The notes under the pieces were generated by a model. The model made no database searches. It saw nothing but the letters and a program-made list of their open reading frames with translations, and had not been told where the DNA came from. Positions 12,201-56,100 of a stretch of 64,000 nt of DNA are shown here, one piece after another. The stretch spans positions 10,081,001 to 10,145,000 of the forward strand of contig NC_092580.1 of the NCBI RefSeq assembly GCF_037975245.1. The letters are read 5' to 3'. This DNA comes from Apostichopus japonicus. Its lineage: Eukaryota > Echinodermata > Holothuroidea > Aspidochirotida > Stichopodidae. The stretch's first letter is position 1; every line of letters starts with the position of its first letter. A program made the position numbers and the translations under genes.

Positions 12201-15200
12201 TGCATTTTGGGATCAACTTGATACCCCACAGCATAAGACTTGTTGATCTCCCGAATGTGCAAGGAGGCCCCACAAACTTGTGGCAGAGTTCTGTGAATGC
12301 TTCGCATATAATAAACTTGATGCAGTCTTTGAAGGTCTATGGACATCTATGAACAACATTGTCTTAATCACTCTAATAGGCATTAGAAATCATGAAAATA
12401 GCTGCAACTCCCATCAAAATCCATCAAAGATTGACCATTTTACAAGTCTTTTCTTAATGCTTGTTTTATTTATGAATACACATTAGCTAATTATGCATTT
12501 ATTATTATTTTGTTTACCATGCTACTAAAACAGGGTATGGCAATATGTGCAAACACCATATTGGTAATTCATTAACTATCGCCAAATGTTTACGTGATAC
12601 ATCGCCACCAAAACATGTTCGTCTATGGTACGTGCACAGCTCTATTTAAACTTCATCACTCACACATTTATATGATCAAAGATACTGCTTACAGTATCAT
12701 GTGTAATTTTCTACAACAGCAATTACTTAGGGTTGGGCCTGTAGTAATTTGACTCTTGGTTCGAGTTCCTAATCCTCCTCCTCCTTGGGAGAAAAACTAA
12801 CGGCTCTTGCTCGTTTGGGGTCTCGAAATGATTTTTGGACCTTATTTGTATGCACAGCTGTGGAAGCAGAAATATTTGCATATTTAATATGTTCAAAGGA
12901 ACTACAGTTTTTTTGTCTGTTTAAAGGTTTAGACTAAGTTTATCAGTATCAATAGCAAGAATTTTCCTATACTGATGATATATGTTTGGTTGGCATGGAT
13001 AACAGTGCTAGAAAGAAACCATCTTTGGAATATAAACTGTTACTTCAGTTTGGATATTATTCCGCACCAGCCATCATCTTCTTATGCTGATGCCAAATTA
13101 TTGATCACAATTGCTTTGTTCTTTGTTTTTCTTCTTTTAATCTTCTTTAAATTCATGAATGTGAAGACTTACTCTGGTTGCTAATTACTTCCAGTACGTC
13201 GTTAGCGATGAGGCCTTGGAGAAACTGGAAGAAGCTCCTCTGGAGGGCGTCCTTTTCTATCTGAGTCTGCATATCCAATTCGTCGGTCGGTTGTGAGAGA
13301 ACGCTGAATATATGCTGCACGACTGGCATGAAGGCCTCTTGCAAGAATGGGATAATAGTTTTCTGAAGTGACAAAAAGTTAACACCAAATCTCACCCCTT
13401 TGATAATCAAACGTGTAGCTTGAACTATACATCTAAAAGTGGTGGCATGTGTATGCATCCCATTCCTAACTGTTGTGTTTCATATTTGTATACACACAGA
13501 CTGCTGCAGCCCTCAACTATAAGTTGAATCCCCCCTCCCCCACCCCCACATATCACAGTAATAGAATTTATTGATTGTTTAATATGTATTTCAATGATAA
13601 ATTTCTAAGTTTAAAGCCATATTTACTATATGTTCTAACTATAAAATAACACAACAGGTATGTACACAATGAGTATGTACACAATGAGTACATAGCTTCC
13701 ACATGCTCAACTATGATTTATTGTCACCAGACCACTTTATTCATAATATGCAAAATTCAACTATAACAACAAGTTTTTTTCCTCTTAATGCATCTTAGTA
13801 ACAGAACTGAGGACTTACAACGATGGTATGGCCTCACACCTGCTTACGATTATTTTCAACCCGGGTACTCTCATCCTCCCTATTTTTCGATAAGATTCTT
13901 ACCTTGAATTTTGAGACGATCTGATTGATCAGAGGAATGAAGTCGTGGACGTCTTTGACGTCTCCTTTCTTCAGCAGATGGTCGACGGCTATCGGTACGT
14001 ATGGGAGTATGGCATCCCCTAAGCATACAATCATCCTATGGAGAAACTGGCGGACCGCAGAGTGGATGAGTTGATGCTGGTATGGAGTCTCCAACGCGCA
14101 GAGAAACACCTTCAGCGCCTCCACGTAGCAGGCTAACAGTCCGCTCTGTTTCATGGTCAGCTGGGTGTGGAACGCTTTACTGGAGCGGCTGCGTGAGACG
14201 TAGAGGAAAGAGAAATATAGATTTCAGAGTGTAAACCCACGACTGAGGTGCAAGCAGCATGAAATGTAATGCCTAATACTTGTTTGGTACGAGGGACGTG
14301 TGGTCTGGTGGAGATGGGAGGGAGGTGGTGCAGTTGGGGGGAGCAGGTGTGGTCGGGTGGCGCTGTTGACAAGAGGTAGAAAAGAAGCAAGCAGGTGCAC
14401 GCGTAGTTCATTTTACGAGAACTATGATGTTGAGAGGGAGGATTAAAAATGGATAAAATATTGAACAATCTTTTGAGGTTATTTATGAATCGACACAATA
14501 TACCATATCTGTTCCACTGTGCTAAAAGGGCAAGAAAACACTGCTTACCAAAGGTGACTATGTTCAAATAATGCACGCATTCAACGTTATTAATTCAGTA
14601 AACTGAAAGATTTTCGACCAGTGAATCAGTTTGTACATGGTAGATTTGAAACCACAGGTATGAGACAGGTCAGCTCGTCACTCGTAAATATCCAAACCAG
14701 TAAGTTTTGGGAATATTTGAGTTGTTCCTCGCTTACCTGTCTCCACACAACCTTAGCACCTCCTACCGTTCCTAGAATGAACTGGTAGAGTGAGAACCCA
14801 TATGGACCTAAATGGTAGTTTTTTCCCACACATATCAGTACACGACCACCTCTCTGTCGACAAGGTTAGTTTAATATCGATCATTTCACGCCATGCTTCT
14901 CTGGGAAGAGGAGGGAAGTAGGTGGTGGTTGATTTGGCACCTAACCCCTTTAACACTTACTACATAATTAAATATTCAACAATTGAAGAGGGCCTGTCTG
15001 CTCTTCCATTCCAAAATGTCAATCACACTTGAATTCTTTGATAGTCCCTTATTTCTCATTTGAGTTATTTTGGGATAATTAGCTAAGTTTCCCCACTCTT
15101 CTTATATAACAATGTGGTATAACCACAGCTATGTGGTTTCACCACAACTATTTTCGAAGGGTATTGTCAAATCTCTACCAAAACCAATGAAGGGTATAGT

Positions 15201-15832
15201 AAAGGTCAAATCTCTACCAAAACCAACTACCAAAACAAACAGTTGGTGTTAACAAAGATAAAATGACAATCAATTCCTTTGTAAATATGGTCACAGATTC
15301 CTGACGACTTAAAATACTTAATGATTGCACAGTTGTGGAGTACTTGCTAATTATATAAAATAAAATTTACCAACTAATAGGCCAAAGGGTAAAGTTTGGT
15401 AAACTCTTGAAAGGCAAAACAACAGCACCAAAAATAGCCTCCAAATGGTTAGGTCTTACATTTATATTTGCCTTACTCTAGAGATCAGAAATGATGCTAA
15501 CCCATTTGTGATTTCTAAAGCCGGATCTTGCAAGAGATACTTTGAACAGACTGTTAAATGAAATGGAGGTAAATGACAAAGGCAAATAAATATTAATATA
15601 ATTGAAATCGTAGTGAGTTGGAAATTCCAGAACAGTGAAAAAACTTCCAGCCTCCACCGAGGTTCAAACCCGGGCCTCCCGCTTTATATGTGGACACCCT
15701 AACCACAGGGATATGGATGCTGATTGTATGTCCATAGGTTCGAAAGAGATAAGGAAGGTCATAATTTCACTGTAGGCGTTTGTCACCTGTATGAAACAAT
15801 TTCAAACTAGTTCTGTTTTGGTGACATATTTG

Positions 15833-15881
<49 letters not shown>

Positions 15882-18800
15882 TAATGATTAATGAATGCTG
15901 TTTTTCCCATCCAATTCAAATTTTCTCATGTGAAGAGTCATCTGACACTCAACAAACACTTTGCTCTGTTAAAATCAACAATGAACAAATTGAGAGAGCA
16001 CCCAAGTTCTTACCTGGCACAGGCAATGGCATGGTTTATAACCTCAGCAAACATAACCTGCTTGGCTTCATCAGTCTCAGAGTGGAGTCTTGTGTACATA
16101 GTCTGGAACTTCTCAATGGTCGTGGCAAGAAGGTTGTTCATCAGTAGTTGCTTCTTCTGATTAAGAGAGAAATAAAAAATGAAAAAACATTTTCAGGAAA
16201 GTTTAACTTTATGGCTTCAAAACAATGAGAGTAAACACGAATCCATCATCAGGTTACTATTTTAAATGTTAGCTATGACATCAAAAGACAACATTTGCAC
16301 ACAAGCTTACGCCTTACAAGGAAAAATTAACTATGAGCTATGACTTAAGAAGGAAAAAAATGTTGCACATTAACTGTGTCTTAAAAAGAAAAATATGAGC
16401 AAAAACTACCCAACACTTTTTACATTTAACAAATGTAAAAATGGTAGGTTTTAATTTTGGCTGTGCTACTGCATACATTACTATTCAATCACAGATATTA
16501 ATTAATTTGCATTAACCAAATCCAGGTTAATAGTGCTTACATACCTCCACTGGTAAGGTGCTAGATATGATGATAATGCCAGCAGCCTCATAAAGGAACA
16601 GTTGATCATCTGTTGTGAGGATCTGATGGTGTCCATTTTCCTGGAAGGCCAAAAAAAGAAAGAAAGAAGAAGGCTAAGAAAAACTTTCACAAAGTTTGAA
16701 GTTATTATAAAAAAACCTTGAGGAAGGTGCTGACAATCAATAAGATGTGTTTTGATTTTGGTTGTGCCTGAAGAGGCCAAAATATGGTTAAACAAATTTG
16801 CTTTTGATACACAATTGAAGAAGCATCTCAATGCATTACTTTTCATAACATCACCTAAGCTTAATACTTAATATGAACATTTTAGTATCACAGTTTGTAG
16901 CCAATTATTTGTAAAATGTACAGATATGGAGAAGAATGGTGTGGGGGGGTGGGGGGTGAGGGGAGATGGGGATTTGCACTTTGTTCTTTACCTTTCTTTC
17001 CTAGATGGAATAAAGGCGAGACACTAGAGGAGGTATCAGCTGTTTATGACTTGCACTCTACAATGAATCATTTGAAGTCAATTTGGGAGTCAAAGGGAAG
17101 ACCAAGATCAACTGGGAGAGATCTCAGAAATGAATAAACCGAGGTGAGGTGGTGATAAGCATGGACTCTGAAAAACAGAATCTGGCATCAACTTAACTAA
17201 CGTTGTAATGTAAACTAGCTAAAAATAAATAAATAACATAAAAAAATATCAGAAAAACTTTTATAACCTACCTTAAGTTACTGCTCCTAAAATGATTTGG
17301 GATCCATTGTAAGATATCTTCTGTGAAGGGTGCCACAGATATTTTTGTTTCTTTGTAAATTAGCAGAATTGCTCAAACCAGTTGCTTGCAATTGCAGCTT
17401 AACTTATTTTTAGTAACATAAAAGATACTCTTGAACATTAGCTACATTATAGATTTTCCTTCATTAACATCATGGCAGTTACCTATTCAGAAATTTTGCT
17501 GTCCCCTCAAAATAGTTCTCGACAGTTAAAACATGGATCTAGGACCCTGTCATGACAGACGTACTGGGACTCCTTGCATATAAGAATTGGGGCTGAATTC
17601 ATTATCTCTATCAACTACTGAGGTTAACCAATGGTACTCTAAAAGGATGTGGTCAATTTGCATAATGATATGTACTTGGCCAAATGCACTTCCTTTGATG
17701 AGAAATGAAAAAGAGGAATGATTTTCTTAAAAACAAATGTTTCAATCTGTGCCATGGGAAAATTAGATTCTGTGTAGTTGCCTATGAGTCTAACTATCAA
17801 CTAACTGTAACTTAGTAGATTAACAAAAACAATCCTTATAGAACTTGGACACAAACTAGCTCCAGTGAACAGATTGAATCTGTTTGATGGGTAGACCACT
17901 TTCGAACGACAAAAAAAAAAATCAGGAAAGATTGGACAAATGTTTGAAAGGTCAACTTACGGGTGTCTGAATGGTCAGAAGATCCGGGATTCTTTGTAAG
18001 ATATCTTCTGCATAAGGAGCGACAAGACCCTTCAGCTGCTTCATGAATCTCCCAAAGAGATACGCACACCGGCTACGGACTGTGCCTTTCTGGTTTCTGA
18101 TGCCGCGCTCATCCAGGAAAGCTGACAGGGCGGCTGGGATGTGCTCCTGAGACGCGGAGAAGAATTTCTCGTATCTTGCTACAGTTTCAAAGTACTGAAA
18201 ATGTGAAATGATTAATATGAAATGAAAGACACAAAAATTAACAGAGGAGAGAGAAAATTGGCGGAGACTATGACTGTCGCTGTGAGAGTATTGTGATCAT
18301 GTAGTTAAGGCAATAATCTAATGATTGCATAATTGGGTCCTGCCAGGATCATTACGTAGCGTCCCTGTGCAAGGCTTTTTATCTCCATTGCCTCTCTTCA
18401 CCCAGGTGTATAAATGAGGACTTGTGATGTGGCTTGTAAATAAAGTTGGATGCGCTGGTTCGTGGCTGCACCCTATGGGTGGTCCCCCGGGGACCACATA
18501 TAGATGAGGTGCACTGTGTTGCCTAGGAAGTGACTGTCTGAATTGTGCACACTTGGGAATGTGGGTGTGACAAGTCACCAATGACCGAGGGGGGGGGGTT
18601 AACTATTGTAAAGCCTTGTGAGAAGGCCTCGCACTGATATAAGAACCGTCCACTTTTAAACTTCTTGATTGCCGCTTTATTTTGTATAGGGTGGAAGAGT
18701 TAGTATTCAGTTCAACCTTCCAGTTGATAGCTCCATTTATTCCATGATTAAAAGTCACACATTCCAACAAATACTCATTATCTGGCTTATACTATAATGC

Positions 18801-21800
18801 ACCCACAACCAACCCTGCAACCCACGTTCAGTTTGTTGGAAGTTACGCAGTCTTTACAGGCACTAATGCAGCTGCGCTAACTTTTACGACATCATACAAA
18901 GCAAGGGCAACGTTGTTTGAAAGGTCAAACCAAAGACATGCCTGAAAACGTCCCTGCTCGCTTGAAAAAGATGCTGGCACACTGCAAGCAGCCAGTGCTA
19001 TATATAAACATAGAACAACAGATGTTACCCTAATCAGATATTCAGTACACACTATGAAAATGGTAGCTAGAGCCATAAATGGATCTTCTGGTGACAAAAA
19101 AGGTGTTCTTGAGATATGGTTGATTGAGTGAAACCTATTTTGACTGGCTAAACCACAAAATTTCAACTATTCCTGGATTGTATCAAAGTAAGGGGGGTCT
19201 GTGATGTCATGTGGATGACTGCTCTCCAAAAGATTTAGTTAGGCTATTATAATCTTCTAGTTCAGTAATCCTTCAAAACAGACACATCTGCCATTTTTCT
19301 TAGCTTCCAAACTGCTCTGTACTTTGAATGTGATCAAAATGTATCCCTAATTTGTAAAAAAATGAAATTTTTCTTTTGCGGATAAATGGTTAACAAATTA
19401 TTAGAGAAAAACAAAAACCGTTTCTCATTCATTTTAAAAATATCACGGAATTCTTTGCAAATACCTCCCTGATACAAAATAGATTCAGAAATATTTCAGC
19501 AATTTTGCAACTTAATAATAATAATTAGCAGTTATTTTTACGACGCTTAAGCGACCACAATGAGGGGAAACCTGAATGGGCTTATGGATTACAACTAACA
19601 GGTTAGGGTGGGAGGGGGGTGGCTTCCAATTCAACATTTTTACTCAAATTTGGAATCTTTTCAATTTAGAAAGTCATTTCAGATGGGAATACCGTAGATT
19701 GCTCTTGGATGAAAAACCCACCTTACTATGACCCAATTGTTAAGCCTCATTGCTTCAAATACCACCACTGCTTTTATCGACTTTATCCAACTTCAGCCCA
19801 GCGCAATATCCTTTTAGCCAAAACAACGAAAAAGGGAACTCCATCTTCTCTGACGGAACAGTTTAAATTGTACCACAAAGTATTTCTTGTTTGCCCTACA
19901 CTTATCGTTTCCTTCCTTTGGTTGTTTTTTGTTTGTGGTTGAAACAATCTACACCATACTTAGATGGCTAGGTTTCACTTCTGCTATTTATGTTGAACAC
20001 GCTATCAAACAGCCAGACTTCCTTCCAAGCAAATAATACAGAGGAAGGGGAACAAAGGTGAAGGGGAACTTCCTCTACAGGGTTCCTGTTTTTGTTTGTA
20101 ACTGTCTGACTTATTTGTGATGCATCTCGTCACAAGACCGACCCTTTAAAACCAATTTAGCAAATAAATATAGACATCCCAACCAGGTGATCCTCTTCTC
20201 ATTTTCTGCTTCCCGTCTGTCAAACACATCAGTGCCGATGATAAACAAAGAATAACGGTACATTGCATGTCATGTCACGCATATCGAGAGCTAGTGGCTT
20301 TTAAATAAATAATACCTGTAGCTGAACTGCCCAATGGGTATGCTGTGAGACGCCGCTCTCCATCAACTGCAATAGGAACAAAAATATTAGACATTAGGCA
20401 AAATATATCCCGAAACAAACATTTATTTGCTCTTTAGAAGGGGACTATCATAGTTCCCACAAAAATGGAATTTACTGGAAAGAGCAAACTTTTGATTGTA
20501 GTTGGTGCTCATAAAGCAGTTTCTAATGTAAGAAAACATTAATAACAAGATTGGACTCATTTATTTCAAAGCAAATTTTCTATTTGCTGCATTTTTGTGA
20601 TATTTGTTTCACAACATGCTATGGTTCTCATGAACACATGATTATTTTTTTCGTTTGTTCTGTAAACAGGACACAAATTAGTCATTTAATGAGTAAAACT
20701 ACCTTTTTAACTGCCAACTAAAATTAGTTTTGAACAGCTAGAAGTGAACAGACTTAAACAAACCAATGTAATATTTGTGATTCAAGTTCTACCAATTATA
20801 TATTTTATTTTAATATAATAGAAATCATAGCAAACATTTTTGCCGTCCAAAAACCTCCAACTCCATAATTAGTATAAATCTTTTTTTGGAAAGCTTAACC
20901 TTTAAAGGTTCTCTTTAATTCAATTTGTCCAAACACATGGTTATCTTTCCCCCATAAAGGTGAGACTTACATGGCTCACTATATGTTTGATACACATAAG
21001 AACTTATCAGGTTGATACACATGAGAACTTATCAATGCAGAAACTTGCCATGTGAATGCACAACTTGTAAGTTGTGTAGCAGTGTCTTTTGCAAGAGAAC
21101 ATTGGCATCTTTCTTTAGAAGTTTTATGATGACCAAAGTTCAAAAACCTGAAGAGTGCTATGTAAGTCTTCAAAATGAAAATTGCTGCCTATGACTGACT
21201 GTGTACATAACTTGCATTACAACAAATATTACATTGTTGCCACAACTTATATACATATTGCCATTACAAAATACTGCCATGGTTACTGTGAAACATGAAA
21301 ATAGCCTGGAAATTTCACAGATATTGTGAAATATCTATCAACAAACAAAGAACCAAACAAAAAACTAACAAAAAGGAAAGTAGTTCATTAATTATTAATT
21401 GTTGGTCAATACAGACACCGTGATAGAAAATTAAGTGAATGCAGACAATAATAAAAAGAGAGAAAGAAAACAAACGACCATAGAGAAACGGTAATTATCG
21501 TAACCATGGCACTCACCAAAACCATGCACTTGTGCATGACGGTCTCCTCCTTCCATGTAAACTGATTGCCTTGGACCGGAGGAATTGCCTCTCCGAGATT
21601 GTAGAACATCGCGATGGCCAGCTCACATTGAGTGAATGTGACGTTCTTCCACTGACTGTCAAAATAAAACAATAAAAGAAAAATACAAAAACTGAGTGGT
21701 AATTAATTACCACAATGGCAGATACAGCAAGCGAGAGAAAGCTGAATAGTGGGCTTTTTAAACTTTGCAAGCAATTACAACTGTTGTCATAGGAAGGGTA

Positions 21801-24800
21801 CATACTGGAAAAAAATTAAGTACACTTTGTGCTTGGCTCATTACCAGAACAAGACCTACCTCAAAGTCATCTCCAATAACTGATGGACGCAGTTTAAAAC
21901 CAGTTCTTGATTCAGCTTGGCTAAATTTACAAAGAGCACCATCATCTGTTTCCGGTAATCTAAGAACATCACCTCGTCTTCGCCCTGAGAGTCAAAGTTG
22001 TACGAGTCGTCGTACTCGAACTTCTTCATGACTACTTTGAGCAGGTCTTCCATACCGAACTGACTCAAGATAGCGGAGCTGCCGACCTAAAGTACATAGG
22101 AAAATACATAGCGTAATGGTAAACAGCATCTGAAAAAACAAAAAACAGGACTTAACACTACCAAACGCCCACTACACACACTCTACAGGACGCACACTCC
22201 AGGGTTCACACTACAGATCGGACGTACACTACAGGCCGGACGCACAGTAAAGGCCGGACGCACACTACAAACCGGACGCACACTACAGACGCACACTCCA
22301 GGATTCACACTACAGATAAGACGTACACTACAGAAAATAAACATTGTAATTAATGAAGACAATAAAAATTGAAGCAGGTGTGGATCAATGATGTCATATT
22401 TGGACTTGATCAAATCTTCAGCCTCGTGTGTGAAAGAAACATTAAATCTCCCAGATGGAATACGATCATCCTTAGCAGTCTGGGGAAGTTAATCTCTATC
22501 ACAAAGACCAATAATGATGGTTGGGCATGTGTCTCCTTAAGTCATAACATCACTGAACGCTCTGCAATGGTGTGGTGTGGAGAGTGCAACAATAAACAGG
22601 TGATCAGAAGGTATGCCACAGGCTAATACTATGGTCAGGATTCAAAACATTGTGTCATACCAACACTTTCAATCAGGCCATCAGTTCACATCCAGGATAG
22701 ATGAAGTTAATTCTATCCACACTAGTCAAAGACATGATACCTTTACAGACAAAGATTCCTTTTTATTTCTTACAATACTTGTTCCTTAATTTCCTGCTGA
22801 GGAAAGTGAGGGAAGAGCAGGAGAGGATACTTTTACACTTTAAACACATCAAGCTAGAAGGGAAATATCACCAAACGATGACAATTACGAAAGAATACAC
22901 ATTCATTCCCCCCCCCCTCCCTTTCAATAACTCGAATACATATGTTACTGAAAATAGGAGATCAATCTTAGAGATTTTGACAAATTTCCTGACCAGATTG
23001 GACCTGCTTTTAATTATTTTGTTGTTCCCCCTGGGTTCCCATCAATAATCGGTACTACATCAAACTTGTGTTGCTGTCAATGGTTTCGCTCTGTCAGTTT
23101 TAGTAAATTACCGTTCATTCTTGCCATGTTCATGAATTGACTAGATTGACTTATTTGGTCCCCAATACCTGTTTCAGAAGACCGATGTACTCCTTGGTAA
23201 AGTCCATTGTTGCTAACGATACATCGTCATCTTCATGACCTAGGAAAGCAAACATGAAGGTGAGCTTCCCCTGGATCGCCCTTAAAGCGTTCCCGGTGTT
23301 CTCAATAGTACCTTCCTTGGATAACCTGTAGAAAGTAACGAGAGGATAGACTGCAAATGAAAATAATCATAATAATAATAATACTAATAACAAGAACAAT
23401 AACATTTTGAGTCTATCCTCATTAAACTCTTTTAACAGATACTTAAAAAGCGTGTCGACTGATGACCCACTGAATTTTGAACTTTTCACCCCGGAATTTT
23501 GAGTGATTATTTATCAACAATGCCACTGCTACATTGAAGTGGATAAATTTAGTGGCAAAGAAGGCATTGAAACTCAGCACCTTTAATGTTGTGGCTTTAA
23601 TTTAATCCTGCTGGCCAACGTAAGACAAGTTTTTCATGAAGATGGAAGCAATGGCTTTGCATAATAAATCAAACATAAGATATAAGAAAGTTAACTTGAA
23701 TTGCAAACTCGTTTGATTTCAAACCAAGTTTATGCCAGGTGAAATAAATGATTACACAATGGCCATTATCATGGTGGTGGTGTTGGTTGTCATTATTAAT
23801 TATTATTTGTTCACTAAACCATTGGCTCAAGTCATATCATGTTTCTACTTATTAGCAAGTTCTAAACCATTCAAGACAGTACAGAAAAGTGTGTGTTACA
23901 GAAATATAATATTAATTATTACATTTCTGTTTTTTATTCTTGTATACTTTTTGTCTATCTTTCGTTGTGTGCTTTTGAAGGACGTAGAGTAACAGATTAC
24001 ATTTCCAACTTCAATAGCATTCCATTCACCCACATTTTCTCTGTTTGGTAAATTCACATTTAAAGGAAAAAGTCAAATCAAACTGAAAATGGTTTTGACT
24101 TTCATAAAGCATACAGCTTAAATACAATACATATATTACTTTGTTTCTACTTTACCTTTGCCAACAACCAATCAATTGACAGCCCATGTCACTGATAAGG
24201 TTTGAGAGTTTAGCTAGATAATCAACATCATCCTCCTGGGTAACAAAATAAAAGGAGAAACAATTTCTGTCACTAGGTCTGTAGCTTTATGCAACAGTAC
24301 TTTGAATACCATTGCCAATAGGTTTCATAGCCAATTCCCCATACAACACATCTTTGGTAACTCTGAAATTTATATATCTACCAACTATTAGAACAAAATA
24401 CAATAAAACTGTTAGCAAACTGCTTATCCATTAGAGAGCCTGTGTAGGAGAATGTGTAAAAGTAAGTTGGCCTGACGTTTTGATCCTAGCAGGATTTTCT
24501 ACAATGGCTAAAATGAAGGCTAAAAATCATTTTAAAATTAATCACAAAAGCTTAAAATCATTATAGCCTTTGTAGAAATCCTGCTAGGATTGAAATGTCA
24601 GGCCAACTTACTATTACACAACTATTAGAACAAGAGTTTTCTTACGGTACCTGTTTTTGGGGAACTGTTCTTCACAAAGACCTCAATCACACAAGCATGT
24701 CCTCTTTAAGTTTTAATATTGGATGCTTTTATTGATCTATTATAAAAGTTCAAATCTTTTTGACTTTCCCTCACCTGTGTACCTCATCAATCTGTACACT

Positions 24801-30800: not shown

Positions 30801-33768
30801 ATTCGGATTCAAGAAATCTAACTAACCTTAAAAATTATTTTGTTAAGGTTGCCACATATTCCAAACTAGTATTAGCGCATGAAAAGAAGAAAAACGTCAG
30901 CCTGTTTTTTTTTCAGATCTCAGTACGAGAAACATGTATTTTATTTGGATAATAGAAAAACTTTCTTTAATGTGGTTAATTCATATTTTCCTACCCTAGC
31001 TATTATTTGATAAAACCTTCATGAAAACCGACTTTTTAGAAAATGGATTTTGAAGCTCAGTCAACAATTTAAAAAATGCTTACCGTTAAATACTGGCGTC
31101 AAAAATACATTTCGAATTTATTCCAATAAAGATCCACAAAGGATAAAAATGCGAAGAACAGCTTACTAAATAGAATTGAAACTGCATGTACAGTACATGG
31201 TCATTTTAAGTATCCAAATACTATACAAAGAGATCGAGTTCACCGAAATACCCCTTTTCCCTACCACCTGAGGAAAAGCGTCTTTTATAAATTATAGTAC
31301 CATACAGTACGGCCAGGTCGATAACGCGGAAACGCGGAAACCGCGGAAACCGCGGAAATCGATAAACCGGGTTCGGTAATAGAGATACCGGGTTCGATAT
31401 CAACGGTTTCCGCGGTTTCCGCGTTATCGACCTTGCTATATAGCAAGGTCGAAAACGCGGAAACCGCGGAAACGAGAGGAATTTGTCAAGGGAGGGTGAC
31501 AAAGTCTTTTTTTTGGGCGCATTTCAGCCTATATTCGCCAAAAAGGGGTGCGGGTTTAAAGCTATTTCAGTAAATGTAGGTCGAAAACGCGGAAATCGTA
31601 CTTTTACAATGGACGAGTTAGATTATTTTGTCAAGGGAGGATAAAGACGTTTTTTGAGCGCATTTCAGCCAATATGCGCCAGGAGGGGTGGGAAAGGGCT
31701 AAGGTTTTTTTTTTTATACTAAATGCAGGTCGCAAACGCGGAAATGTTTTTGTACACAATGAATGGCGAAACTAGAGGATTTGTCAAGGCGGAGGGTGAA
31801 GAGTTTTCGGCGCATTTCAGTCAATATGCGCCAGGAAGGTGATGGAGTTGTAGGCTTTTCCCCTAAATGCAGGTCGCAAACACGGAAATGTTTTTAACAA
31901 AGGCGGAACTAGAGGAGTTTGCCAAGGGAGGGAAATGAAGTGTTTTTGGCCGGCGCATTTCAGCCAATATGCGCCAGCAAAGGTGTGGGGATGTGGTTTG
32001 AGGCTTTTACACTGAAATACAGGTCGAAAACGCGGAAATGTTTTTTTAACAATGGTGAAACTAGAGGATTTTGTGGTGGTTATTCCAGACATTAATCAAA
32101 GAAAATGTGACGTAGGCTATTAATATCAGAGCTTAAGTATTTCGCCATGGCATAAGTCTCAGCATACCGGTTCTTAAGCTAATAATTGAGTAGAGCTTGA
32201 TATAAGTACTTCATACCCGACGAATCTAAGTGTTTTCTACATAACGATATCTCAAATAACAAACTTAAAAGAAAGAGAGTAAACACAAACGGAGGTACAA
32301 TGGAAATTTTCTGATATAAACACGTATAGAACTAAAACATTAAGCTTTTTCAAGGTCCCGTAACACTCATTAAAGAAGTAATGATTTAGTGGTAATTTAA
32401 ATCGGTCAAGCACTCTTTGGACTGGGCAAGACGCATTATGGTACTCTTCTACAATGTCATTAGAGTTCATGTTACCCAATGGTTTGGTGATCCAAGGCGT
32501 GCTGCATGGATTAGGGCCCAGAGCGTGTTCGTGGTCCCGTTACACTCATTAAAGAAGTAATGATTTAGTGGTCATTTTAATTGGTCAAGGACTCTTTGGA
32601 CCGGGCAAGACGCATTACGGTACCCTTCTACAATGTCTGTAGAGTTCATATGACTCATTGGTTGGGTGGTCCAAGGCGTGCTGGTCTTGATTAGGAGCCA
32701 AATGTTTTTCATTCGTTGTCCCGTTACACTAATTTAATAAGTGATTATTTAGTTGTCATTTTAATTGGTCAAGCACTCTTTGGACCGGGCAAGACGCATT
32801 ATGGTATCCTTCTTCATTGTCTTAAGAATTCATATGACCCATTGGTTAGGTGGTCCAAGACGTGCTAGTCTTGATTAGGGCCTAAAGTGATTTTTCGTCA
32901 GGTCCCGTTTCCGTTACATTAATTTAAGAACCGATGATGTAGTGGTCATTTTAGTTGGTCAAGAACTCTTTGGACCGGGCAAGATGCACTATGGTACCCA
33001 TTTACATTGTCATTAGAGTTCAAATGACCCAGATAAACCTCTTTTCCACGACCAAATGTTGAACATCTTGTAAGAATGCATTCGTCTTGTCATAAGTGTT
33101 ACGTCGGTACCATTGTCGAATAAGAAACTGAATAGGTAGCAGTTACTCATTCGCGAACGTCGAACGAGGAACGAGGAATTAGTATCTAACTTCACACCGG
33201 TATTCCAATACTGGGGAAGATGGCAGGGTTGCCAGTTTTATTGTAACGCAATCGGTCAAATAATTGTAAATGTGACTGTCTTACTTCTAATAGTTCGCAA
33301 CTTCAAGTTCATACACTTCCTCCGAATCGTCCCCCAAAACATAGGTTTTATGTTTTCTTTTCATAAACGATCAAAAGCTCCTTTACCGTCCCCTAGCTGT
33401 GAAAATTCTCTAGATCCGCCATTGTACATACGCACCTTTATATATACCGACGGGGTGGCCCCAGAGGGGGAGGGAGAAGCGGGGTAACAGTCCCCTTCCC
33501 CTCGTCGGGGAGGTCTAGCCCCCTGGTAGGGGAAATTATGATTTCGTCAGGGAGCAATGAAGAAAAAAATATATTATTGTGTATTTCTTATCATCATAAT
33601 GATCATTCTATGATAAAGATAAATGTAGGAAAATCAGTCCCCGACAGGTGTCAGCCGCACCGACATACGGGCTTCAAACTTTTCTCATATACCAAAAAAG
33701 ACACCACAAATTACCGCGCGCTTCGGCAATATTAGATTTATATATACATAGATATATATCTGTATGTG

Positions 33769-33810
<42 letters not shown>

Positions 33811-36800
33811 TGTGTATGTGTAAGTATATATATACATATATATATATATAATTTTTTATTTTTTTATTAATATTACAACGTGCACACAATTGTTTCCGGG
33901 GACCTTAGCTCCCGTGTCGGAGAAATCCTGGAACCATCCCTGCATACCAAATGGACGTTAACAAACATTACTGAGTTTTCTGCCTGTATTTAGTGAAAAA
34001 AGCTTCAACCCCAAACCCTTCTTGGCGCATGTTGGCTGAAATGCGGCCAAAACATTTCTTTACATTCCTGCATGCATTTAGAGTATTTCCGTCATTGTTA
34101 AAAAAAATTCGCGTTTTCGACATGCCTTTAGTGGAAAGACTTCAACCTCACCCCTTTCTGGCGCCTATTTGCTAAAATGCGCCCAAAACACCTTTTCACC
34201 CTGTCTTAACAAAATCATCTAGTTGTGAAAAATGTTGTGAAAAAAAAAAAAATTCCGCGTTTTCGACCTACACTAACTGAAAAAACTCTCATACCCCCAC
34301 TCCATCCTTGCGCATATTGGCAAACACTTTTTCCGCGTTTTCGACCTGCATTAAGTGAAAAAGCCTCAACATCCTTCCTCACCCCCTTCCTGGCATTTTG
34401 GCTGAAATGCGCCGGCCAAAACCCTTCTTTTCCCTCCCTTAGCAAACTCCTCTAGTTCCGCCTTTGCTAAAAACATTTCCGCGTTTTCGACCTCCATTTA
34501 GTAAAAAAAACAGCCTACAACCCCTCACCTTCCTGGCGCATATTGACTGAAATGCGCCGAAAACTCTTAACCTTCCGCCTTGACAAATTCTCTAGTTTCG
34601 CCATTCATTGTGTAAAAAAACATTTCCGCGTTTTCGACCGGCATTTAGTGAAACAAAATCTTCTATCCCCACCCCTCCTGGCGCATACTGGCTGAAATGC
34701 GCTCAAAATTTTTTTCACCCTCTCTTGACAAAATCATCTAGTTTCGCCATTGTAAAAAAAAAAAACATTTCCGCGTTTTCGACCTACACTACCCTCCCTT
34801 GACAAAATAATCTAACTCATCCATTGTAAAGTACGATTTCCGCGTTTTCGACCTACATTTACTAGCTTTAAACCCGCACCCCTTTTTGGCGAATATAGGC
34901 TGAAATGCGCCCAAAAGACTTCGTCACCCTCCCTTGACAAATTCCTCTCGTTTCCGCGTTTTCGACCTTACTATATAGCAAGGTCGATAACGCGGAAACC
35001 GCGGAAACCGTTGATATTGAACCCGGTTTATCGATTTCCGCGGTTTCCGCGGTTTCCGCGTTTCCGCGTTATCGACCTGGCCCATACAGTACTTAACATT
35101 TGATACAAAAGTAACATCTACAACAACTTCCCAAAATTTGTACGTCACAATAGGTTAAGTTTTAACCGCACAGTACCATTAATAATTTGCATATTACATC
35201 AAAAGTTACACTCGGGCGTCCAGATGGCGGGAAAATGTACAATCATGTACAATTTGTTGTGTCGTTCCCACGGTGCAATGAACTTGGGCAAGTTGCCAAG
35301 TTCGAATGTCGTTGACCTACTTATGTTCCGTAAACAATGTCAATGGGAATTATGTGTGTAAAAACTTGTTTTTTCCATGTGTTATATATATATATAGAAG
35401 TTTTACGTAAGCGGAGTGAATTTCGGGCGGCTCGTTGATTGTGAGGAAGCACTTATCTAAGCATCAATATTTGTGAAATATATCGTACGGTTTTTCTTCA
35501 GAAAATATTTTTGACTAGTATTTTCTCAATGTATTAAGAAGGGTGACATACCCTATGTTCCGACGTCTCTATGTTCCGACGTCTCTTTAAGTTCCGACAA
35601 TTTTTTTGGACTCTAATTTTTTGAACCCAATTTTTTTCTGGGGGGGGGGGCTCAATTGTGTTAGACCCAAATTCTGTCTGACTAATTTTTTGGGGGATTC
35701 AATTTTTTCGGACCCAATTTTTTTGGGGACTCATTTTTTTTTACCCAAATTTTGTCTAGCTTAAGTTATTTTTTTTGGGGGGACTCAATTTTTTTGGACC
35801 CAAATTTTCTTTGTGGAATCAATTTTGTTAGACCCAAATTTTGTCTCACTAACTATTTATTAGGGGGGACTCAATTTTTTCGGACCCGATTTTTTTTGGG
35901 GGACTCATTTTTTTTGGACCCAAATTTTTTCCGGCCTAATTTTTTTTTTGGGGGGGGACTCAATTTTATATGGACCCAATTTTTTTTTGTGGAATCAACT
36001 TTTTTGGACCCACAATTTTTCTGACCTGATTTGTTTGGGGGGACTAATTTTTTTCGGACGCGCCAATTTTTATTTACGAAACAAAAAATAAAAGGGCCCA
36101 GAGTTTTTTATGACCCAAATAGTGCTTGTCCGAAAAAAAAAATTGGTCATAAAATATTTTAGAGTAAACACAATTTGTGTCATCAAAATATTTTGGTCCA
36201 AAAAATTATGGGTCTTAAAAAAATCTGGTCCGAACTCCGAAAACATATTGGTCAAAAATATTGGTCAAAAGAACTTCAGAGTAAAAAACAATTGTCGGAA
36301 CGTAGACACGCCGGAACCCATAAAATATACTGGGTCTACCCCTAATCATTGCATTTTGAGCGAATGTGTATTTAACTACGTTACATGATGCTTAAACACA
36401 TGTTTGAACAAAATGAAAAATTCAAGTATTACCACATAAATATTCAAAAAATATACTTTTGTTGCATGGTATGAAGGATTTGGTGAAACTAAACATGTCT
36501 GGACTGGTTTGTAAATTCTACGAGGTTCGTGATCAACTTGACCGTCTAGTATTTTCAGAAAGTAAGGTTGCTACCATACAAAACTGTCCGGCCAAAAGCA
36601 ATTAAATGACTTTATGACATTTAAATAAAAAAAAAGCTTCTAACAGAAGTTATGACCAATTTTGTATAATTTTTAATGTGCGCGTCAATACGGGTTGCCA
36701 TCAGGATCATATCGATTACTGATGCTATGCAAAAGAAACTGCTTATTTGAGCATATCATATGGTGCGGAAAAACATTCTTCAAGTAAACAATTTTCTCGA

Positions 36801-50118: not shown

Positions 50119-53100
50119 TCAAAACTCTTTAGTGAGGGCATGTACGGCCTTGAATCCCCTGTTATCACACACCTCGGTAGCGATCCTCTTCAAGTTGTCG
50201 TCTCCATTGCCATCACCTGTGACAAAAGCAAAACATGGCTGGTATAGTATTAAGGAAGCATGAATTCAGAGGTTTAACAGATTCCGTATTTCCAAACAAT
50301 CTGACATTACCAAATTTAACAGAAACTGCTACAAACATCCTTCCTTTCAATCTCAAATGTCTTGTGAGAAATTTGTTATGCAATATTTGCCAATGATCAA
50401 AAAGTCCAAAATTTCAGAAAATTGTTCGGAATTGAATGGAGGCCTTAATATTGATTAAATTAAAAGAAAAAATAAAAGGAAAAAAATAAAAAAATAATTT
50501 TTTTGTTGTTGAGAGTGAGACAATCTAAGAGTGTTAAAAGCATCATTGATTATAATTATAACATTGAGTAACAGTCTGGGTGAGTTTGGTATCAAACTTG
50601 TCAGAAACTGGCATAGACTCAATACACAAATCCAATTCATCGCTGAAGACACTAGTACTGATGCCCTCATCTCCTATTCTCAACTCACCATCAGCAATCT
50701 CTGCTAAATTCTGTTGGATTCTCTTTGAAGCCTGACTGCAGAAGGTCTTGGCGAGTAACGTCTCGTGTTCATTATTGGGCAGCCCCCACGAGATGGACCT
50801 AGTCGCCCTTGAAAGCACTGCTGTCATGGCGTAGATGTCGATGAGAACATCTGCCACCCTCTTCAGGACCATCTGTTCCCTGACAATGTCCTATCGAGAA
50901 AAGGGTAAAAGCGTTTACAAAAACAGTGACAAAACCGAGAACATTATGTCATTCTAAGGTACAGATATGAGTTCCCAAATTGACAGACTCTTAATTCTTC
51001 CAAGGTGTGCATCACAGTGGGTGGTCAGTGACATCTAATTTTATCTATATAACCCAAAGAACACAACCAAACACAAACATAGAGCAATTAAATATGCCAA
51101 ATGGCATGCTACAATATAAAAGACATTCTTACCTTTTTGTACTTGGCTAGGATACTTTCCACGCTAAAGCCAAACACTGTTATGCTCTTTGAGAGCTCAT
51201 CGGCACTCTCCTGGAAAACAATAATAATCAGCAGATAGTTTACTTGAAGTAGAAGGCCTACATGATCAGGAAAGACTGATTTCCTGGCTGTGATAACCTC
51301 ATTAGTGAAAAAAAAGGTTTACTGAGTAACAATGCTTTTTTTTACCTTTCTGAACAACAAAAATATCAAACTATACTGTAATGACTTGACAGATTATTGG
51401 GATAGATAAATAAAGTAACAGTCTATGTATTTATGCAGCAACATGATGGGGCTACTGCAGCTCCCAGTTGTAGGCAAGTAATGAGCCACATAGTTTGGCC
51501 ATTTATTTTAAAATCAACAATAGCCTTACTATATATATGTATATGAGACACATGCATATTTGTATCAGCATACTTTAGACACAAAACCAGGGCTTCTTTT
51601 GTATACAAATGAAAAGTAAGTAAAAATCATGAGGCATAGCCCAAAAAACAGGGCCGATGGGGATAAGAAGGGCGCTATCCTTTGCTAATTGACATTGAAC
51701 ACTAGCATTGTCCTTGCATGGAAGGTATTACACTACAAAGTTGCAAACTAAACAGATGCATTTATGCAAGAAATGTAAAGTACCTGTGACAGTATTACAC
51801 AATAATGGGGAGGATACCTGCCATGTCACAACCAGGATTTTAGTGATTGAGCAATCCCTTATACTATAATGCTTATAGCATTTATCATAATGCAATTGTG
51901 AACTAGTCAACTGAGAAAAGCCAAAGCAATCTTGCAAAACAGTGCATTCTTTATTTGTCATGATTATTCAAGCAACAAGCAACTAATATTGTAAACTAAG
52001 TACATATGTTGACATTATCCACAGCCATAGTATCAAAGGCACTGCAATGCACAAGTCTGACCACACAATACAAACATGATGTCTTTCCAACTTCTTGCTG
52101 GTTTAAAATGCTGACGAAAGGTTCCAAATTTTGACCTCTAGTGATTATATTATAATCTCTGACATCTGTCAGCACAGCTCTTCCCTCCAGTGCAAAGAAA
52201 TGAAACTTCCGTTGGGTTTTTGCTTTATTTGCGTGTGTTCTATACCAGATAATTTCTCATTGAATTTATACCTTTAACGTTGGATGAGTGGCATCGTCTT
52301 CATGGAATACTGGTACTTTTGGTGTTACCCCCATTCTGTAGAGTACCCTCTTGCTCAGTGATTTGTAGACAAATCCTGGATTGGAAAGCGGTGCCCTCAA
52401 CTTCCTGCGATATGTCAAGATAGAATGATTATAGCTCGAACTTTAACACTTAATGTTAACACGAAGCAACGCTCTGACAAATCTTTCTAGTTGTGAGTAA
52501 TTTTGATTTGCTGGAAAAATTTAAAATTGAGCAAGAATCAACTCTCATACTGCTACACGAAACCTTTATCGTAGAACGTATTCATAACCTGGTAGAGCTC
52601 CTATTCATAAAAGTAGTCAAAGGGCTTCATGCGTTAAATCTAGTTGGATCTTAGTTTCAAAAGCAAATATAACTTAACAGATCTTCTAAATATCAAACAC
52701 TTATTCATAACAGCTGGTGCAGTGTATAATTTGTTGTTAACAACGAAAATAGTAAAAAATATTTAGAGAAAAAATGCATCATGTACAGCAAAATTATATT
52801 TGAATCAGCTCTTTTTAGCATTTAATAGACAAACCTAATCAAAATGAGGAGAGAGATAACCAGAAGCAGACATATATGCACATTTATACATGTTAACTAA
52901 CCGGAGTGTTTCTTGTAATTCTTTGCCGGCGTGTTGCATGCAGGTCAAGGCTACGTACATACGTAGGATCTCATTCGTACCCTCAAAGATTAGCAAGATA
53001 CGGCAGTCTCGCATGTACCTCTCGTAGGGATAATCCTTCATGTACCCCAGACCACCCAGAATCTGGAGAGCTTCAGAGACGGAATACCAGCAGCCCTCTG

Positions 53101-56100
53101 AACTGAAAATCTGAAACAGGGTACAGTAGATGCCAAGGGTAGCATAGGAGTTAGGATTAGACCAGACAAAAGTAGTCAGATGGAAGGAATCAGAAGATGA
53201 AAGTTCAGAAATGAAAGGTTTCAATGTCATAACTGTGCAGGGGGTGGGTGGGGTTTGCAACAAGTCCATGGCCATCCACACCACGATATCATGATAATTT
53301 CCATGTAAGTCTATGCACAAATATAATGCAGTGGCGGAGCTAGGGGTATTGGTCAGAGGGGGGCTTTCGACACTATCTAAGCGGAGCGCCACCACAGGTT
53401 GGTGCTGAGCGTACAGAAATTTTTTGAGTAAAGATACTCCCTAGATCGCCGGAAATGAACACACTGATCATGGAGCAGCGTATAATGTACACTGCATGCC
53501 GACTGCATGCCGAAAATTTGGTGTTTATTACTATTTTAGCCACTGCACGTGGCGTATCGTCTTAAAATAGATCGAAAACCCCGTACAGTTCTTGGAAATA
53601 GTTTCGTACAACAGAAGTGCTGATATAAACCGAGACCCTGAAGGAAGCAGGCGGTCAATTGTCAAAGCTTACAACATTTTAACAAATTTACGGCTATTTT
53701 TTACAATTTGAAAAGTTTTGTATTAATGACTACGTTTGTTGTTATAATACCAATGGTTTGGACGTTTTTAATATATATCTGAACCATAATTTTTAGAGAA
53801 TCTTAAGCAATAGTCTCAGTGCAATACAGGAATAACTCAACCTAACAGGCCTACACACAGTGCCTACCGTAGCAAGCAGTGCTCAATAGTATTACAGTGA
53901 ATTAGTGTGTACATCACAATGGAAGCAGATCACACACGCTACGGGATTACCACTCAAATCATTTCAGAGTGTCAGACAGAGCCGTCATTAATCGACCCAT
54001 GCTCAACAAACTGCCGCGACCCCAATGGTGAACTAGCCAAGCATGTCGCCTGTGATTTCTGTGGTGTAGTATACCATCTCTTATGTGTTGGTTTGGAAAA
54101 ACAGCCTGTTAAAGGAGCGAAATCGAGATGGTTTTGTCAGGGATGCCTTAAAACTCCAGGCCTGCTTCAATCAACGCAGCACCAACTCAAAGAGGCATTA
54201 AGAACTATTATATCTCTGCAAGCTGAACTGGCGGAACTTTCAAGCCCAAGGCCAAGAAACACAGAGACTGGTAATGTACAATCAGATAACCAAAATAACA
54301 TAGACACTCCCGATCAAGTCCGCCATAACACCTACGCCGAATGTGTCTCATCTATACCTACACCACCACCCCAAGCCGTACGACCAGTAATGATAATCGA
54401 GGACTCTATTTTAAAACACGTATATGAGGATGATTTTACTGATGAGATCGTGAAGGTAAACTGCCTGCCGGGAGCCACTGTCAAGGACGTGAGAAACGCT
54501 CTTCTGGCTCAAAGGGAAGATTTACATACATTTAGTTATATTATAATTCATGTTGGAACGAACAATATTAACACACATAATCCAAATGTCAACGACATTT
54601 CTGCTGATTTCGAGGAGCTCATCACATCTATCCATCTACTGAACGGGCATAGACCAAGCATCTATATTTCGGGCCTGTCCGCGGAGTGATGATCATACGC
54701 CACAAATTATAGATTTGAACTCTCACCTGAAGGAACTCACCAATAAGCTGGATTGTAAGTTTTTAGACAATATGGTGTCGTTCACTTACGCAGATGGTGA
54801 AATCGACTTATCTTTATATCATGGCGATGGTGTACATCTCAACAGAAAAGGCACCGTTAAACTGATCAACAAACTAACGATCATAGGCCCCATCTGCATT
54901 CGAAAGAAGAGCTCAAAGATGGAGAATGCCCGGCATATGGGAGTTTCAAATCCCTCCCGCAACTTCTATAGTCAACACCGCTCAAATGGGACTATCCACA
55001 ACAACACGTCCAGATATGAACATAGGCAGCAACGGATGAGGGGTTTCACAAACAACGATCACCAACGTGAGTACCACCGTAGACCAAATCGCCATCCACG
55101 AACATCCAACTCATCTCGTCAAGATTGGCAGCGGGAATGCCACCGCAAAGAAAACCGCCAACCAGTTGCTGACCACTATAATCACCGCGGATGTTTCAAC
55201 TGTGGTGAACGCAACCATGTAGAGGCAAACTGCCGTCTCGAAAGGAGGATAGAATGCCATCACTGTTATCGACTCGGTCACAAGGCAAGCCACTGCTGGA
55301 ACCGATAAGATGCTGGCCAGAAGGAGCGTGCCGTCAGTATATCACCCACACCTAAACAATTTAATGTATTGGACAAATGTGACCATTTTATTTTGCCGTA
55401 TGAGGACCCACTCATGAGTGATGTAAGTCAAGATCTCCCAACTAATACAATACAACCCCAGAGTAAAGAAGGTAAATATGTAACTATAACTAAGGGTATC
55501 CAATTTGGATTTATAAACATCCAACACCTTCATCCTAAACTAGATCAAATCCCCACACTTATAAACAGAAATGGAAGGAATATTGATATATTTGGATGCT
55601 GCGAAACATTTTTAAACTATACTTATCAAAATCTGGAAATCACTGTTCCTCTATATAATACTATCCGTAGAGATAGATTAAATAAAGCTGGTGGGGGTAT
55701 TGCTATTTATATCAATGAAAACATTCCATTTAATAGGAGAAATGAGTTAGAATGTGATTATATTGAAGCCATATGGATTGAGCTTGTCTTACCATTTACC
55801 AAAAATATTTTAGTATGTGCTGTTTACCGTCCACCAAATTCCAGGGTTATATGGTTTGGTCATTGTCATGAAATGATTAGCAAGGCATATAGCTCATGCA
55901 TGGAGATAATAATGATCGGTGATTTTAATATTGATTATCTACACGCTAATATACCTTCATGTTGGAATGAGATAATTAGTCATTTTAACTTTAAACAATT
56001 AGTAAATATGCCAACTAGGGTGACGGAGCACACCGCCTCCATAATTGATCATATCTATGCAACTAATGAAAATCATATTTGTGATATAGATGTTCCAAAT

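What the first reader, a model, noticed from the sequence alone, without database searches (positions are those of the whole stretch)
31301..35092. Complete foldback transposon with exact 10-bp target duplication, hairpin tips and modular arms
Element 31311-35082 has perfect GGCCAGGTCGATAACGCGG ends, an exact CATACAGTAC duplication, and arms of repeated ~145-bp units facing each other. Each tip also folds on itself through CCGCGGAAA repeats and a TATATA palindrome. The left arm carries a ~30-bp insertion not in the right arm. The structure matches the foldback class (Drosophila FB, sea urchin TU), but the unit sequences and the 180-bp core array are not ones I recognise, so it may be an undescribed family.
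Basis: partly seen in the sequence, partly recalled or inferred. Interest (0 to 1): 0.85.

Follow-up and report, generated by a model that had tools for sequence, protein, structure and literature searches.

The report
Recently active echinoderm foldback transposon family
The stretch is a real, recently mobile "foldback" jumping element with mirror-image arms built of repeated blocks, one of about twenty well-preserved copies in its (echinoderm) genome, and its middle carries a broken arm of a second, different foldback family; it is a nice new family of a known kind.

Summary
Window 31311-35082 is a complete inverted-repeat element with an exact 10-bp target duplication. The 19-base tip occurs 57 times exactly in the host genome, 0 in the reversed control. 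It gives 22 head-to-head pairs: 19 have exact 10-bp duplications, 2 have 9 bp, 1 has 10 bp with one mismatch. A clean paralogous empty site with one duplication copy exists for one sister copy. 40 of 48 arms have a counterpart of at least 98% identity in another element, so movement was recent.

The arms repeat an inward-pointing tip-like motif about every 145 bp in all 24 elements scored. The "unrecognised" 180-bp core array is a broken arm of a second foldback family (tip ACCGGTGTGAAG, 190 exact tips; of 22 pairs read, 14 have 9-bp duplications, 1 has 10 bp, 7 none).

No transposase gene was found in the copies looked at. None of 38 MULE-domain loci lies within 26 kb of any of 79 tips with at most one mismatch, so Mutator membership is inferred from duplication length and architecture. 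The host reads as an echinoderm. New family of a known kind.

The parts
31301..31310 (.). left 10-bp target-site duplication CATACAGTAC
31311..31434 (+). left tip hairpin: GGCCAGGTCGATAACGCGG, CCGCGGAAA repeats, reversed motif copy (longer than the right one by 21 bp)
31428..31451 (.). perfect palindrome CGACCTTGCTATATAGCAAGGTCG between tip hairpin and arm array
   Evidence: sequence; the fold pairs its middle
31311..32073 (+). left arm: tip plus about 145-bp units, 6 inward-pointing tip-like motifs counting the tip
32074..32341 (+). core spacer present at 92-100% identity in 16 of 24 family elements compared
32342..33201 (-). fragment of one arm of a second foldback family: 3.7 units of about 180 bp plus its outer end, ending at the tip ACCGGTGTGAAG (read on the minus strand); present whole or in part in 16 of 24 family elements
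33350..33495 (+). about 146-bp core module found at 92-100% in 22 of 24 family elements; 84% over part of it in L024, not found in L026
33739..33850 (.). TA tract; in the C5 copy an unrelated repeat of about 19.6 kb lies in the equivalent tract
33961..35082 (-). right arm: about 145-bp units, 8 inward-pointing tip-like motifs counting the tip, 91.3% identical to the left arm over 711 aligned columns
35083..35092 (.). right 10-bp target-site duplication CATACAGTAC

Best explanation
It is a non-autonomous DNA transposon of the foldback kind. A transposase made elsewhere recognises the GGCCAGG...CGCGGAAA tips. It moves the whole element as DNA into a new site with a 10-bp staggered cut, giving the 10-bp duplication. 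Shown: tips, duplications, dispersed near-identical copies, a paralogous empty site, no recognisable coding capacity in the window copy. Inferred: the transposase is of the Mutator (MULE) superfamily; the inward-pointing tip-like motif repeated about every 145 bp in each arm is an array of transposase-binding sites; arm length varies by gain and loss of whole units. The middle of the window copy contains a broken arm of a second foldback family that landed in an ancestor and has since been carried along by this family, in 16 of the 24 elements compared.
For: 57 exact tips (30+, 27-), reversed control 0. 22 exact-tip pairs of 1.9-7.8 kb on 13 contigs: 19 of 22 exact 10-bp TSD, 2 of 22 9-bp, 1 of 22 10-bp with one mismatch. 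Seven further pairs with an imperfect tip also have 10-bp TSDs: exact in L025, L027, L030 and the C5 copy, one mismatch in L024, L028, L029. L027-L030 appear to be one insertion copied with its surroundings. Empty site: joined flanks of sister copy L016 match 40 of 40 scored places over the junction; in the two that I aligned, L041 and L042, the junction carries one TSD copy with no gap at it. 40 of 48 arms have a counterpart of at least 98% in another element, while left and right of one element differ by about 6%: one master copy spread recently. All 24 elements have motifs pointing inward in both arms. No frame over 169 aa in the 21 loci, and no Pfam hit in six frames of the window element.
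Against: No autonomous copy was found. None of 38 MULE-domain loci lies within 26 kb of any of the 79 tips with 0-1 mismatch. Six MULE loci (stretches of 7-10 kb) carry no tip with fewer than 6 mismatches; the only matches to the family were in TA-rich stretches (L043, and 105 bp of L047 against the L018 core). So the Mutator step is not shown. The window element's own empty site was not searched for. Of the 40 empty-site matches only 4 span 109 of the 110 bases; the others are 102-103 bases long, so they lack about 7 bases at a place I did not read. 131 of the 231 tips with up to 3 mismatches were not listed (control 49), so a coding copy with drifted tips could have been missed, as could one in assembly gaps.
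Confidence: 0.9

Rival explanations
1. Foldback of a non-Mutator superfamily (for example P-type, as reported for Galileo), which evolved the same arm architecture independently.
For: No MULE gene is linked to the tips. PMC3169594 (passages) states that foldback elements can harbour different transposase classes, including a P-type one in Galileo.
Against: The consistent 10-bp duplication (19 of 22 exact) fits the 8-11 bp given for MULEs (PMC6446971, passages); P-type elements make shorter ones (recalled). MULE-domain loci, some with a FLYWCH match on the same strand 0.4-4.2 kb away, are present in this genome. P-type transposases were not searched for.
Confidence: 0.2
2. Mirror-image arms made by local duplication or inversion without transposition.
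For: Some copies were duplicated with their flanks: L004 and L006 have flanks identical over 150 of 150 bases on both sides, in reverse, and L027-L030 on C7 share target-site letters in both orientations.
Against: 22 exact-tip pairs on 13 contigs, nearly all with different target sites and exact duplications, and a clean empty site for one.
Confidence: 0.01
3. The element is a short form of a larger autonomous transposon, the 22.7-kb C5 copy being the complete form.
For: C5:1915002-1937689 has family arms at both ends and an exact 10-bp TSD GTGGATTTAG.
Against: Its interior is a separate repeat: 10 other places match more than 5 kb of it at 97-98%. Of six stretches fetched where the ends of three other copies were expected, three (L036, L037, L040) show the match stopping at C5 index 1492 or 21136-21160 without foldback arms; L035 is all N, L038 shows nothing, and L039 has one unexplained 292-bp match to C5 index 21786-22064, outside the repeat. 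No Pfam domain in six frames of index 3400-21300.
Confidence: 0.03

Closest known systems
Tetris, foldback of Drosophila virilis (PMC4079207; passages, section 10)
   Same: Long inverted arms (up to 1,735 bp) with a tandem array of about 220-bp units, non-coding middle of variable composition, no autonomous copy found, 8-10 bp duplications, array units that gave rise to satellite arrays elsewhere.
   Different: Other unit length and host; three structurally complete copies against 22 exact-tip pairs here. Here the array that is also found elsewhere belongs to the arm of a second transposon family, not to this family's own arm.
Tm1, Mutator/Foldback family of root-knot nematodes (PMC3169594; passages)
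   Same: Composite inverted repeats of variable length, many copies without a transposase, 8-10 bp (mostly 9) duplications, a test for empty sites.
   Different: 13-15 bp arm units, 9-bp duplications, and a member coding for a Phantom-type MULE transposase was found there; none here.
TU elements of sea urchin (recalled; PMC4079207 cites a sea urchin foldback)
   Same: Foldback element in an echinoderm.
   Different: No TU sequence was at hand; TU duplication length (8 bp) is recalled. Sequence relation not testable here.
Drosophila FB / FB-NOF (recalled)
   Same: Inverted arms of repeated units, non-coding members moved in trans.
   Different: Shorter arm units and 9-bp duplications (recalled); no NOF sequence was at hand to search with.
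Rehavkus (PMC6446971, passages and table row)
   Same: Inverted repeats up to 400 bp plus minisatellite.
   Different: 9-bp duplication and a PHD-finger transposase; this family makes 10 bp and no transposase was found.

Membership tests
Foldback class (structural) | long modular inverted repeats facing each other with tandem units | tested here: met
   motif orientation in 24 of 24 elements
Foldback class (structural) | fixed-length target duplication and dispersed copies | tested here: met
   19 of 22 exact 10 bp; 57 tips
Foldback class (structural) | precise empty site | tested here: met
   for sister copy L016; not tested for the window copy itself
Foldback class (structural) | non-coding middle of variable composition | tested here: met
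Mutator (MULE) superfamily | target duplication of 8-11 bp | tested here: met
   range from PMC6446971
Mutator (MULE) superfamily | a member with the same tips that codes for a MULE DDE transposase | tested here: inconclusive
   none found, but only 100 of 231 tips with up to 3 mismatches were listed
P superfamily foldbacks (Galileo) | short (7-8 bp, recalled) duplication | tested here: not met
   duplication is 10 bp
P superfamily foldbacks (Galileo) | P-type transposase | not tested
   no search with a P model was made
TU (sea urchin) | sequence homology to TU arms | not testable with these tools
   no TU sequence or repeat library at hand
Rehavkus | 9-bp duplication | tested here: not met
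   10-bp duplication in this family
Rehavkus | PHD-finger transposase | not tested
   no search with a PHD model was made; no transposase found in the copies read

The most novel reading that the evidence does not exclude
The arms are amplified arrays of the transposase-binding tip. A foldback element lacking its own gene has out-competed its (now drifted or lost) autonomous parent by multiplying binding sites, and each internal unit can serve as an alternative end. It also swallowed the arm of a rival foldback family with a different cut length (9 against 10 bp) and now disperses it, so foldback families grow by exchanging arm modules.
Probability: 0.25. Interest if true: 0.55.

Novelty: new member of a known kind. 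Interest (0 to 1): 0.4.

Why it matters
Well-preserved foldback families with many complete copies, exact duplications and readable empty sites seem rare (my recollection; the open-access library gave few foldback papers). This genome has two such families, with different duplication lengths, a piece of one nested in the other, and one young enough that arms match up to 100% between copies. That makes it possible to ask how foldback arms grow, whether arm units bind transposase, and what moves elements that have no gene.

Tried and rejected
Autonomous partner. PF10551 in the host genome gave 38 matches at E<=0.001 and 85 at E<=10. The nearest of the 38 to any of the 79 tips with 0-1 mismatch is 26.3 kb away. 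Six of the 38 loci were fetched as 7-10 kb stretches and scanned; a second copy of one was fetched to find its ends, but the two were 99.4% identical over the whole 7 kb, so no ends appeared. FLYWCH gave 11 matches. Seven one-ended tips (2.5 kb each, from about 1 kb inside the tip) and two loci with divergent module matches were sampled: longer pieces of this family in some (L052, L053, L056, L059), small matches (L054, L055) or none (L051, L057, L058) in the others. Of the frames of 110 aa or more that one search printed, the seven that I gave to Pfam showed no transposase; one 465-aa frame (L051) had two matches below the curated cut-off, one of them lectin-like. Shorter exons were not scanned.

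The 22.7-kb C5 copy looked like an autonomous element but its interior is a nested separate repeat.

Long copies L015, L017, L019, L020 and L024: length comes from inserted or rearranged DNA, no long frame, no Pfam domain in L015 1771-6302; the inserts of the other four were not scanned with Pfam.

Homogenisation of the two arms within an element: rejected. Mean identity of the first 420 bp is 0.937 within elements and 0.942 between elements, 24 elements, L004/L006 pair excluded from the between set.

Palindromic target preference: not beyond column composition (34 of 110 pairs, mean of column shuffles 34.8, p 0.61). A weak G-T...A-C edge preference remains. The 22 TSDs used there leave out L006 (same site as L004), L011, L015 (9 bp) and L027-L030, and take the left copy for L009 and L024.

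Papers: nine searches of the open-access library. One search was too loose to mean anything (3,561 papers, the ten listed are irrelevant). None of the papers listed in the other eight describes by its title an echinoderm foldback family; subscription papers and Repbase are not covered.
Full report
WHAT IS THERE. The window element spans 31311-35082 (3,772 bp) between exact 10-bp duplications CATACAGTAC. The outer 64 nt of the two ends are perfectly inverse. Each end folds on itself as a single strand through CCGCGGAAA repeats and a reversed copy of the tip motif, much more strongly than shuffled DNA. Then comes a TATATA-centred palindrome, then an array of units of about 145 bp. The arms align over 711 columns at 91.3% identity.

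Each arm unit begins with a near-copy of the tip itself, close to AGGTCGAAAACGCGGAAA. In 24 of 24 elements scored (20 fetched, L024, L025, L026, and the window copy) these motifs, found with up to 3 mismatches, point inward in both arms. The only reversed copies lie within 150 bp of the ends, as hairpin partners of the tips (at both ends in 23 elements, at one end only in L007). Counts run from 6 to 13 per arm, tip included; steps are mostly about 145 bp, some about 70. Single-base shuffles of the window element give 0.005 on average against 16 observed, and the rest of the 64-kb window has none. Genome-wide, a 17-base form occurs 329 times exactly with 0 in the reversed control; only the first 100 places were listed. 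That these are transposase-binding sites is inference.

COPIES. The exact 19-base tip occurs 57 times in the 671.6-Mb host genome. 44 of these form 22 tip-to-tip pairs of 1.9-7.8 kb on 13 contigs. 6 more pair with a tip that has one mismatch, and 7 stay unpaired. Of the 22 pairs, 19 have an exact 10-bp duplication, L011 and L015 a 9-bp one, L009 10 bp with one mismatch. L004 and L006 have identical 150-bp flanks in reverse, so independent insertions are 21 at most; L027-L030 on C7 appear to be one insertion copied with its surroundings (ungapped flank comparison is mixed, 70-149 of 150). Across 22 duplications the edges prefer G-T at the left and A-C at the right, weakly, and there is no palindrome beyond that.

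EMPTY SITE. Sister copy L016 sits in a repeated sequence that reads like reverse transcriptase (my reading of the flank translation, not a database match). Its two flanks joined with one duplication copy match all 40 scored places (of 261 candidates) over the junction. Four of these span 109 of the 110 bases; the others are 102-103 bases long and lack about 7 bases at a place I did not read. I aligned two of the four, L041 and L042, over 290 bases: each carries one duplication copy and no gap at the junction; the only gap is one T ten bases away. L042 matches every base of the duplication GAGACTAACG, L041 differs at its last base. This is a paralogous, not an allelic, empty site, and it is for L016, not the window copy.

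AGE. Of the first 420 bp of each arm, 40 of 48 arms have a counterpart in another element at 98% or more; the exceptions are both arms of L017, L020, L024 and L026. Four of the 40 are the duplicated pair L004/L006. The two arms of one element average 93.7%. By best match, left arms go with left arms and right with right, or the reverse when the element lies the other way round. So one asymmetric master copy was spread recently, and the arms are not being equalised within elements.

THE CORE. 16 of 24 elements carry the window-type core. Five others (L001, L008, L015, L016, L018) have a short core sharing a module of about 146 bp (window 33350-33495) at 92-93%; L020 is intermediate and also has the module at 93%, L024 has part of it at 84%, L026 has none. 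The extra 1.28 kb of the window-type core includes 32342-33201, which is a piece of another transposon. It is present in 16 of 24 elements, whole or nearly so in 14, cut short in L009 and L013. The 180-bp array matches 27 places outside this family among the 40 scored of 343 candidates. Two such loci read in full, L049 and L050, are inverted-repeat elements whose arms, 1.9 and about 1.35 kb, are arrays of 179-bp units. Their ends read ACCGGTGTGAAGTTAGATAC, and the fragment in the window ends there at 33201. This second tip occurs 190 times exactly, reversed control 0. In the first 100 places listed I count by hand 25 head-to-head pairs of 3.3-11.9 kb and 9 places inside copies of the first family. 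Of 20 of these 25 pairs whose edges I fetched, 13 have an exact 9-bp duplication, one a 10-bp one and 6 none; L065 and L067 have the same duplication and near-identical edges. L049 has 9 bp and L050 none; the remaining three were not examined. So the host has two foldback families with different duplication lengths, and the window element is a copy of the first with part of an arm of the second inside.

WHAT MOVES IT. No frame over 169 aa in the 21 loci, and no Pfam domain in six frames of the window element, of the L015 insert or of the middle of L049. The genome holds 38 MULE-domain matches, several in long open frames, and 11 FLYWCH matches, some beside MULE matches. None of the 38 lies within 26 kb of any of 79 tips with at most one mismatch. 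Six MULE loci scanned show no related ends. The 10-bp duplication and long arms fit the Mutator superfamily (8-11 bp; PMC6446971, passages), and PMC4079207 (passages) says most foldbacks seem to belong there. The direct test, a gene between these tips, was not passed. I put Mutator at about 0.75.

HOST. The mitochondrial contig's cox1 reads through with AAA as Asn at positions that are normally Asn (code 9, which echinoderms share with flatworms; recalled), followed by frames that I read as nad4L and cox2, the echinoderm order (recalled). Class not determined. A sea urchin foldback is cited in PMC4079207 (TU elements, recalled name); whether this family is related to it could not be tested.

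VERDICT. The finding is right in observation and in kind. It is a new, young family of a known kind with two points of interest beyond the first report: the arms are arrays of the tip motif, and the unknown core array is a rival foldback's arm. The absence of a linked transposase is common for foldbacks (recalled; also so for Tetris) and may reflect incomplete listing, so I do not score it as a mystery.

Noticed in passing
L021-L023 (C5:1916341 to about 1936000) and, among others, C19:5226316-5233781, C7:3881261-3888731, C16:42078541-42086012: A repeat of about 19.6 kb; 10 other places match more than 5 kb of the 8-kb piece searched at 97-98%; no Pfam domain in the six frames scanned (C5 index 3400-21300). 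In C5 and C7 at least one end lies in a TA tract. It sits inside a foldback copy on C5.
   Followed up: partly
C10:13183546-13191071 (L049), C12:20888178-20892031 (L050) and 23 further tip pairs: A second foldback family with 179-bp unit arms, ends ACCGGTGTGAAG and mostly 9-bp duplications (14 of 22 read); 22 of 25 pairs are 6.7-11.9 kb apart; the interior of only one copy was scanned for domains, none found.
   Followed up: partly
C16:44214024, 44390008, 44568316, 44905649, 45103686, 45589454: Six tips TGCCAGGTCGATAACGCGG in the same orientation, 176-486 kb apart, suggesting a large segmental amplification near the end of C16 (L031 carries arm pieces).
   Followed up: no
C7:4944785-4949529 (L030), 8211015-8212998 (L027), 9787137-9791100 (L028), 10782765-10786733 (L029): Four foldback copies with the same target-site letters in both orientations, up to 5.8 Mb apart on C7: probably one insertion spread by segmental duplication.
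   Followed up: partly
C11:10789890 and C11:10802058: A MULE-domain match lies 12 kb from a tip of the second foldback family; a possible coding member of that family.
   Followed up: no
window 53901-57967: Open frames resembling a non-LTR retrotransposon (zinc knuckles, endonuclease, reverse transcriptase by eye) and at 52835-53440 (-) an exon that reads like an acyl-CoA dehydrogenase (names by eye, no family search).
   Followed up: no
window arm units, e.g. 31810-31833: Arm units also hold an imperfect palindrome of the form GGCGCATTTCAG..AATATGCGCC.
   Followed up: no
window 35553-36059: Tandem arrays of short TTTTTTTGGGGACTCA-like units right beside the element.
   Followed up: no
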